In this document: in pieces, positions 13,791-14,567 of the stretch | Position numbering within the stretch: the first letter of the stretch is position 1 | Layout of the letters: every line of letters starts with the position of its first letter | DNA from: Microcyclospora pomicola | Lineage: Eukaryota > Ascomycota > Dothideomycetes > Capnodiales | Direction of reading: 5' to 3' | Length of the DNA: 27,520 nt | Assembly (NCBI GenBank): GCA_002786065.1 | Contig: NHNY01000052.1 | Location: 1 to 27,520, forward strand | Position numbers and translations under genes: made by a program | Notes under the pieces: model-generated | Seen by the model: only the letters and a program-made list of their open reading frames with translations | What the model was told of the DNA's origin: nothing | Database searches by the model: none

Positions 13791-14567
13791 CTAGTCCAAA
13801 TCGCTGTACATGCTTTCGTGATGAAAAGCTTTTGCTGCAGCTGCTGCACATAGCTGTGTAACAGTTGCACTTGCAGGACCAGGAGCAGGAACAGGTATGA
13901 GAGTACCCCCAGCAACACGTGGAAGTAATTGACCCTGGTAATAAAGGTTGTGGCTATTGATATGCTGGTAACCATTAGACCAATTAAGTCTAACATGAGT
14001 ACCCATGGGTTGGTTATCAGCATATCAGTTATCTACTACACCTACAGGGGATGAATTTATTGGTATAAATCCACCTATTACTACATCACCTACGGTTTGG
14101 AATGCCATAGGAGGTCTTCTAAAAAGAACCATTCTAATATTAGAAAATGCTAAATAAGGCTCAAGAGAATAACAACCTGGTTTCTCAGGCAGAACGAAGT
14201 TTGGAAACCATATTATTACCCCACTCACTTGCTCCTTCATTACTTCTAATAATGGATCGAATAAAGTTTGCCTGACTATCTGCATGACCTCTATAGTATT
14301 ACCATCGTGACAATAAACACAAATATGTTTAAATATATAAACCAGTACAGCATAGAAAGCACAAGCTGTAAGATCTAAAAATCAAAAGATAGAAATCATA
14401 GAAAGAATATAACATGTAAAAACTATAAAACCCCATCTCATAAAAGAAGTTAGTTTTACGAATAATTCATAATAGTAATTACCTTTAAGATAACATGACA
14501 TGGCATAACGAAATAAAATTAACAGAATCGGATAAATTATATCTATATAATCTATATATAACGACAT
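13791..14567 (-). other. 258-codon extension domain fused to cox1
   Basis: This marks the part beyond normal Cox1. Residues 1-90 hold three hydrophobic stretches (near [30 protein letters not shown] and [12 protein letters not shown]), followed by about 170 mostly soluble residues with [20 protein letters not shown], a Pro/Gly-rich segment (VPAPGPAS) and an alanine run near the end ([18 protein letters not shown]). I do not recognise it. Codon use differs from the core: at least three TGG tryptophans beside two TGA, and several CTG, CAG and GGG codons, suggesting a separate origin. If all three hydrophobic stretches span the membrane, the tail would lie in the intermembrane space, because Cox1 normally ends in the matrix. 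It might also be cut off, or start separately at the ATG 14567. Confidence 0.8.

What the first reader, a model, noticed from the sequence alone, without database searches (positions are those of the whole stretch)
13791..14567. cox1 is fused in frame to a 258-codon domain of unknown function
The frame passes the normal Cox1 end (KPHAFASLP) without a stop and continues for 258 codons with three hydrophobic stretches and a soluble tail. Codon use (TGG, CTG, CAG) differs from the core, suggesting acquired DNA. I know of no fungal Cox1 with this tail. If retained, it would put a large domain on the intermembrane-space side of complex IV.
Basis: partly seen in the sequence, partly recalled or inferred. 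Interest (0 to 1): 0.85.

Follow-up and report, generated by a model that had tools for sequence, protein, structure and literature searches.

The report
Fast-evolving tail fused onto fungal Cox1
In this fungus the mitochondrial gene for the core respiratory protein Cox1 does not stop where it normally should but continues into an extra 258-residue piece that also exists, strongly changed, in a close relative, and related mitochondrial genomes carry quite different extra pieces at the same spot.

Summary
The window is a circularly mapping fungal mitogenome; cox1 (minus strand) runs through its usual end ([15 protein letters not shown]) into 258 further codons, with a TAG at 13791-13793. P0003, a Cox1 from a metagenome contig, has the same fused tail end to end, so a sequencing error is very unlikely. 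Cores are 99.2% identical, tails only 56.9%, yet the differences are conservative and stop-free, as in a selected protein. The tail has no significant match in Pfam, NCBIfam, PHROGs or PDB; it is a hydrophobic anchor plus a soluble part. The wider pattern is more interesting: of the 120 listed Cox1 hits (a similarity- and length-biased set), 56 others carry different tails of at least 75 residues and 16 run into cox2, joined at the same place. One tail is a worn nad4L piece; another has become a separate ORF that keeps a copy of the cox1 end. I conclude: a real, probably translated, lineage-specific cox1 extension. Release by cleavage and permanent retention are both open; the intermembrane-space placement is not supported (weak lean to matrix). 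Function unproven.

The parts
14568..16247 (-). cox1 core, from the likely ATG (16245-16247; true start uncertain) to the conserved end ...[15 protein letters not shown]
   Evidence: PF00115 E 1.2e-149; translation; 99.2% identical to P0003 over 518 aligned residues
13791..14567 (-). C-terminal tail, 258 codons in frame plus stop TAG (13791-13793)
   Evidence: homologous tail in P0003, 56.9% identity over 253
14487..14555 (-). first hydrophobic stretch of the tail ([23 protein letters not shown]); carries an Arg conserved in P0003; membrane crossing doubtful
   Evidence: hydropathy and charge count
14376..14435 (-). second hydrophobic stretch ([20 protein letters not shown]), likely transmembrane helix
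   Evidence: hydropathy
14313..14366 (-). third hydrophobic stretch ([18 protein letters not shown]), likely return helix
   Evidence: hydropathy
13794..14312 (-). soluble part of the tail, 173 residues; conserved blocks include DGNTIEV, QVSG-IIWFPN, QTVGDVV-GGFIPI, INSH-L-YQGQ, LIPVPAP-P-SA-VTQL
   Evidence: alignment with P0003
13584..13729 (-). inverted copy (94%) of the start of orf140, just downstream of the cox1-tail stop and in the same frame; not part of the tail protein
   Evidence: repeat I1; translation
24265..25017 (-). separate cox2 gene: shows that this is not the known cox1-cox2 fusion
   Evidence: ORF list, named by me from its sequence

Best explanation
The cox1 gene of this fungus has lost its ordinary stop codon and now expresses, on its own transcript and start codon, a lineage-specific extra module of 258 residues as the C-terminus of a Cox1 precursor. 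The module is a membrane anchor (most likely a two-helix hairpin after an interfacial first stretch) and a soluble part of 173 residues, more likely on the matrix side, where the Cox1 C-terminus lies (orientation recalled); this placing is a weak lean. It is one example of a broader habit in this group: the end of cox1 (...LPLQS) is a joining point where frames lying downstream (cox2, pieces of nad4L, unrelated ORFs) are captured, evolve fast and are replaced often. Shown: the open frame, its conservation in P0003, protein-level constraint in that pair, the common joining point, different tails among related cores. Inferred: translation, anchor topology, and that the tail, as presumably Cox2 in cox1-cox2 fusions, is more likely released from Cox1 by cleavage near the junction (about 55%) than kept on complex IV (about 45%).
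For: Same fused tail from end to end in P0003, a metagenome protein. Neutral-drift simulation to the observed tail divergence leaves no stop in only 4, 3 and 6 of 1000 runs (three transition biases) and in none of 3000 runs reaches the observed share of conservative differences (0.440, highest simulated 0.433). Joining point: in 119 sequences selected by the motif PKPH.F..LP, the next residues are L in 110, Q in 117 and S in 117, with no agreement after that. 89 full cores fall into 29 tail states with at least 38 changes on the core tree. Capture shown directly elsewhere: the tail of P0012/P0013 is a worn nad4L end (E 3e-15; 0 of 2000 shuffles reach the score). Separation shown elsewhere: in contig L002 the tail type of P0112 is an ORF of its own behind a cox1 that stops, and it keeps a copy of the cox1 end (40 of 54 nt identical). 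No other copy of the tail in the assembly (one match, the window itself).
Against: Only one homologue of this tail is known; conservation rests on two sequences. No RNA or protein data. The DNA of P0003 could not be fetched, so no dN/dS. Codon use is poorer than in other genes (z -3.4), which also fits a weakly used or recently acquired stretch. Release by cleavage has no direct evidence here; the Neurospora Cox1-precursor precedent is recalled, not found. The net negative segment behind the third hydrophobic stretch does not favour the matrix. The anchor of this tail shows no relation to the other tails tested, so the 'habit' is inferred from position, not from shared descent.
Confidence: 0.72

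Rival explanations
1. Permanent fusion: the tail stays on Cox1 and forms an extra, lineage-specific domain of complex IV (assembly control, supercomplex contact or regulation).
For: Continuous frame without an evident processing signal; no RNA structure beyond chance at the junction (z -0.82, 38 of 200 shuffles fold as well); tail and core stay joined in both known members. The last 15 residues of yeast Cox1 are needed for feedback control of its own synthesis (passage in PMC10132202).
Against: Another kind of tail lives on as a separate ORF in L002, so being joined is not needed in that case; tails range from 0 to 332 residues among the 89 cores compared, odd for a structural part of complex IV; cox1-cox2 fusions presumably need separation (inference).
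Confidence: 0.33
2. RNA-level separation: the cox1 and tail frames are cut apart in the mRNA and translated separately, the joined frame being only apparent.
For: Fungal mitochondrial transcripts are commonly cut from longer ones (recalled); cox1 and cox2 in Shiraia are annotated as two genes without spacer (PMC4366305, passages).
Against: No tRNA between core and tail, no structure beyond chance; the tail starts with Met right after the junction here, but P0003 has Val in its place; the joined frame is kept in both members.
Confidence: 0.12
3. Harmless read-through: a stop codon was lost and meaningless downstream DNA is translated without function.
For: Unusual codon use; very fast change (43% of tail residues against 0.8% of the core); different tails among relatives; worn nad4L pieces as tails in P0012-P0015 (P0014/P0015 by eye).
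Against: Neutral simulation: almost no stop-free runs and no run with as many conservative differences.
Confidence: 0.12
4. Sequencing or assembly error that removed a stop codon near 14568.
For: None found; raw reads not available.
Against: P0003, a different sequence, carries the same fusion.
Confidence: 0.01

Closest known systems
cox1-cox2 fused frame of Dothideomycetes (Coniothyrium glycines 'putative polyprotein', PMC6221350; cox1-cox2 without spacer in Shiraia bambusicola, PMC4366305; passages seen)
   Same: cox1 without its own stop, continuing in frame into a second protein directly after the Cox1 end; 16 of the 120 listed hits bear COX2 domains (precomputed Pfam)
   Different: Here the partner is not cox2, which lies apart at 24265-25017, but an unknown module; no COX2 domain in the frame
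P0003, Cox1 of 872 aa from a JGI metagenome contig of 22,240 bp
   Same: Same tail, 56.9% identity over 253, same joining point
   Different: N-terminal leader before the core differs; tail has one non-overlapping hydropathy peak over 1.6 where the window has three
Other Cox1 tails in mostly unnamed, presumably fungal mitochondrial sequences (27 kinds among 89 full cores, this one included)
   Same: Same joining point after LPLQS; many also begin with hydrophobic stretches and end in a soluble part
   Different: No detectable sequence relation to this tail: no blastp link but P0003; hhalign scores of its anchor (best 18.0) lie within those of 27 control pieces (best 20.4)
Intron-encoded homing endonucleases fused to the exon upstream (discussed for Erysiphe necator, PMC8260586, passages seen)
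   Same: ORF expressed by riding in frame on a mitochondrial core gene
   Different: The tail lies behind the last residue of Cox1, not in an intron, and shows no LAGLIDADG or GIY-YIG domain
Neurospora crassa Cox1 precursor with processed ends (recalled, not found)
   Same: Possible precedent for removal of a Cox1 C-terminal extension
   Different: Extension much shorter, as recalled; not compared here

Membership tests
Cytochrome c oxidase subunit 1 (COX1, PF00115) | full-length COX1 profile match | tested here: met
   1.2e-149, profile 1-436 of 436
Cytochrome c oxidase subunit 1 (COX1, PF00115) | heme and copper ligand motifs ([37 protein letters not shown]; roles recalled) | tested here: met
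   all four present in the translation, read by eye
Cytochrome c oxidase subunit 1 (COX1, PF00115) | assembly into an active complex IV | not testable with these tools
   no protein data
Dothideomycete cox1-cox2 fusion | cox1 lacks its own stop and runs on in frame | tested here: met
Dothideomycete cox1-cox2 fusion | the partner is COX2 (PF00116/PF02790) | tested here: not met
   no COX2 match in P0001 at E up to 10; cox2 is a separate gene
Dothideomycete cox1-cox2 fusion | the host is a dothideomycete | not tested
   organism not identified; 5.8S search of the assembly found nothing
Homing endonuclease ORF fused to an exon | LAGLIDADG, GIY-YIG or related domain | tested here: not met
   only Pfam match of the tail at E up to 10 is DUF7402 at 0.071, below cut-off
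Homing endonuclease ORF fused to an exon | lies inside an intron | tested here: not met
   follows the conserved Cox1 end; the core is one uninterrupted frame
Tail family of P0003 | alignable over the whole tail, same joining point | tested here: met
Largest other tail cluster (P0007, P0016, P0017, P0035, P0077, P0084, P0111, P0122) | sequence similarity of the tail | tested here: not met
   no blastp link at E < 0.01; hhalign of the anchors of P0077, P0084, P0122, P0035 within controls

The most novel reading that the evidence does not exclude
The C-terminus of Cox1, in a gene used as a byword for conservation, is a docking site at which related fungi add, exchange and lose fast-evolving protein modules that are expressed from cox1 itself and act at the inner membrane, free or bound to complex IV. 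Their pace of change would suit a conflict role, for example between mitochondrial lineages, with nuclear control of mitochondria, or against mitochondrial RNA viruses.
Probability: 0.3. Interest if true: 0.82.

Novelty: new variant of a known kind. Interest (0 to 1): 0.62.

Why it matters
Cox1 is among the most conserved proteins encoded in mitochondria and serves as a marker gene (general knowledge). A position directly behind it where related mitochondrial genomes carry different, fast-changing extra proteins is unexpected; it raises the testable questions of whether complex IV carries lineage-specific domains or Cox1 is made as a polyprotein, and what drives the turnover. It also means that annotations which stop cox1 at the usual end could miss coding sequence.

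Tried and rejected
Standalone relatives of the tail: 776 candidates, none at E <= 10. Second search with the tail of P0003: only itself among 2685 candidates. IMG/VR contigs: 27 pattern matches, no relative. Tail alone against PDB: two hits at E 0.33 and 0.35, not meaningful; profile of both tails against PDB none; PHROGs best 0.28, NCBIfam none. AlphaFold2 of the tail with P0003 as alignment: mean pLDDT 37.0, unusable; of the full frame with 18 sequences: 36.7, and the known Cox1 core was little better, so the failure says nothing about the tail; no fold search was therefore made. Idea that the anchor of this tail shares descent with the anchors of other tails (they looked alike to me by eye): not supported, hhalign scores within those of 27 control pieces. 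The same call does hint that some other tails are distantly related to each other (cluster A to P0019 score 26.2 and to P0048 22.0, best control 20.4), so the number of independent kinds may be lower than counted. Idea that orf140 or orf377 are former tails: no blastp similarity to any tail at E < 0.01, no Pfam match above cut-off. Junction hairpin as RNA cutting signal: z -0.82. Counting membrane helices over all tails to settle the side: not used, because homologous pairs gave different counts. L003, the second IMG/VR contig found with this Cox1, shows no PKPH end motif in the stretch held. Soluble Cys-motif tail of P0084 in IMG/VR: no relative. Placing the fungus by 5.8S rRNA: no match in the assembly, 39 of 838 candidates scored. 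Literature: nine searches on cox1 tails, fusions and Cox1 precursors listed no paper that I recognised from title and start of abstract as describing such tails other than cox1-cox2; one listing was cut (20 of 31 shown); the library lacks most subscription journals.

Full report
Setting. The first and last 89 bases of the window are identical (1-89 and 27432-27520), so the contig maps as a circle of 27,431 bp (inference). It holds both rRNA genes, 24 tRNA genes by ARAGORN and cob, cox1-3, nad1-6, nad4L and atp6 (ORFs, named by me from their sequences); an atp8-like motif was seen near 19902 and no atp9 motif with one pattern. It is contig C48 of an unnamed assembly of 23.4 Mb in 58 contigs. 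The organism is not identified; 'fungal' rests on the gene set and Cox1 relatives. Genetic code 4 is assumed: the cox1 frame holds 17 in-frame TGA codons, 15 of them in the core.

The observation. On the minus strand cox1 is a single uninterrupted frame. The COX1 profile matches over its full length, the canonical C-terminal block [16 protein letters not shown] follows, and the frame continues for 258 codons to TAG at 13791-13793. Chance of 258 open codons from base composition alone: about 4e-6; the other five frames of the stretch hold 12 to 23 stops. The tail's codon use is indeed unusual (z -3.4; conserved genes and core -1.6 to +1.5; the two other unknown ORFs, orf140 and orf377, -1.5 and -2.2).

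Is it conserved? A search for standalone relatives of the tail found none. A search with the C-terminal 348 residues of the whole frame scored 1528 proteins at E <= 0.001, of which the best 120 are listed; the best, P0003 (872 aa, JGI metagenome contig of 22,240 bp), matches over 98% of that query, tail included. Between window and P0003 the core is 99.2% identical over 518 residues and the tail 56.9% over 253. A second search with the tail of P0003 found only itself. A simulation that lets the window's tail drift without constraint to the same identity gives 4.8 to 5.5 stops on average, no stop in 4, 3 and 6 of 1000 runs for three transition biases, and never as many conservative differences as observed (0.440 of differences positive in BLOSUM62; highest of 3000 runs 0.433). 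The tail therefore looks selected as a protein, though loosely. This rests on a single pair.

What is it? No significant Pfam, NCBIfam, PHROGs or PDB relative (best Pfam E 0.071, below cut-off). Three hydrophobic stretches lead, then 173 mostly polar residues. Two AlphaFold runs gave no usable model (mean pLDDT 37.0 and 36.7), and since the second failed on the known Cox1 core as well, this is no evidence about the tail. Charges: the loop after the first stretch holds 3 K/R to 1 D/E (window) and 5 to 1 (P0003), the loop between two and three no K/R in either, and the first stretch has a conserved Arg; by the positive-inside rule, and with the Cox1 C-terminus on the matrix side (recalled), this leans to a hairpin of stretches two and three with the soluble part in the matrix. 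The segment behind stretch three is net negative in both (2 to 5, 2 to 4), which does not help that reading. Three crossings and an intermembrane-space domain remain possible.

The wider pattern. Among the 120 listed hits, 57 have a tail of at least 75 residues that is not COX2: P0003 and 56 others (whose 58 rows include the window; it left out P0004 and P0005, whose second part repeats cox1, and P0031 and P0116, which lack the end motif). Sixteen carry COX2 domains. In the 119 sequences with the end motif (the window included; the motif itself fixes the L-P), the next residues are L in 110, Q in 117 and S in 117; after that no agreement. Clustering by blastp at E < 1e-4 leaves many unrelated tails, though hhalign hints at distant links between some of them, not with ours. 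For 89 sequences with a full core, labelled as short (32), cox2 (9) or one of 27 other tail kinds (48), the core tree needs at least 38 changes of state (quick tree, many weakly supported forks, and the number of kinds alone forces most of that figure). Of eleven tail pairs that I listed, ten could be compared. Core and tail identity: window/P0003 99.2 and 56.9%; P0006/P0010 99.2 and 43.0; P0008/P0026 98.5 and 66.2; P0032/P0094 99.8 and 79.7; P0042/P0043 98.1 and 56.2; P0016/P0007 99.0 and 51.5; P0084/P0122 97.3 and 28.3; P0047/P0112 95.6 and 27.7; P0036/P0079 92.7 and 34.9; P0061/P0062 100 and 99.2. P0077 lacks a full core. So tails change much faster than cores. Pfam finds only COX1 at E <= 0.01 in the 52 tailed proteins that I chose for the scan; it also missed the nad4L piece in P0012, so it is not sensitive to short remnants.

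How tails arise and leave. The tail of P0012 and P0013, whose cores are 96.5% identical to ours, is a nad4L end with an inner deletion (E 3e-15 against the window's nad4L; score 153 against at most 52 in 2000 shuffles). In the IMG/VR contig of L002 cox1 stops five residues after LPLQS, and the next ORF begins MLGLHNPPKPHGFVTLQLKSS, a second copy of the cox1 end (40 of 54 nt identical, shuffles at most 29), and continues as the tail type that is fused in P0112 (66% over 137 residues including the cox1 end). The simplest reading is that a fused tail was parted from cox1 by a duplicated cox1 end. Neither case involves the tail of the window, but both show the joining point at work.

Mechanism. 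My preferred account: loss of the cox1 stop lets a downstream frame use the transcript, start and translation apparatus of cox1. In Dothideomycetes cox1 and cox2 are often adjacent without spacer, in Coniothyrium glycines without a stop ('putative polyprotein', PMC6221350, passages); the pair is called typical of the class except Mycosphaerella graminicola (PMC4366305, passages). If such precursors are cut, other partners can be tolerated there. Retention would matter because the last residues of yeast Cox1 steer its own synthesis (PMC10132202, passage).

Novelty. In-frame fusion behind cox1 is known for cox2. I did not find other Cox1 tails of this kind described in nine searches of an open-access library that lacks most subscription journals (seen as listings; passages of six papers). 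I file it as a new variant of a known kind.

Noticed in passing
window 20969-21114 (+) and 13584-13729 (-): The first 45 codons of orf140 (20980-21402) are repeated, inverted and 94% identical, just behind the cox1-tail stop and in the same frame, which stays open for 77 codons after that stop. The placing in frame alone could be chance.
   Followed up: partly
window 25014-25105 and 26235-26326: The 92 bases before and at the cox2 start are repeated (87%) inside the beginning of orf377 (25222-26355), in the same frame (YYFVNAIQLERLI-IL-FLISVNPF): an unknown ORF that seems to have taken over the cox2 leader.
   Followed up: partly
L002 11378-11862: cox1 ends, then an ORF starts with a second copy of the cox1 end and continues as a tail that is fused to cox1 in P0112.
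   Followed up: yes
P0007, P0016, P0017, P0065, P0077, P0084, P0111: These Cox1 tails end in a Cys-x-x-Cys ... Cys-x-x-Cys motif like a zinc knuckle (by eye; no Pfam match above cut-off for P0084). Several tails have a start-like Met-(Ala/Asp/Glu/Gly)-Ser right behind the hydrophobic part, as if a former ORF start were kept.
   Followed up: partly
window 16245-16367 (-): The cox1 frame is open upstream of the likely ATG, and part of it (LYCFIFNLFSHIN) resembles the N-terminal part of P0003 (LYYFIFNLFSHIN); the true start of Cox1 is uncertain.
   Followed up: no
window 26342-26503: Tandem repeat, 51-bp unit, 3.2 copies, at the upstream edge of orf377, towards the large rRNA gene.
   Followed up: no
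G000: No 5.8S rRNA match in the 23.4-Mb assembly (39 of 838 candidates scored, controls all prokaryotic), so nuclear rDNA may be missing from it or was not picked up.
   Followed up: no
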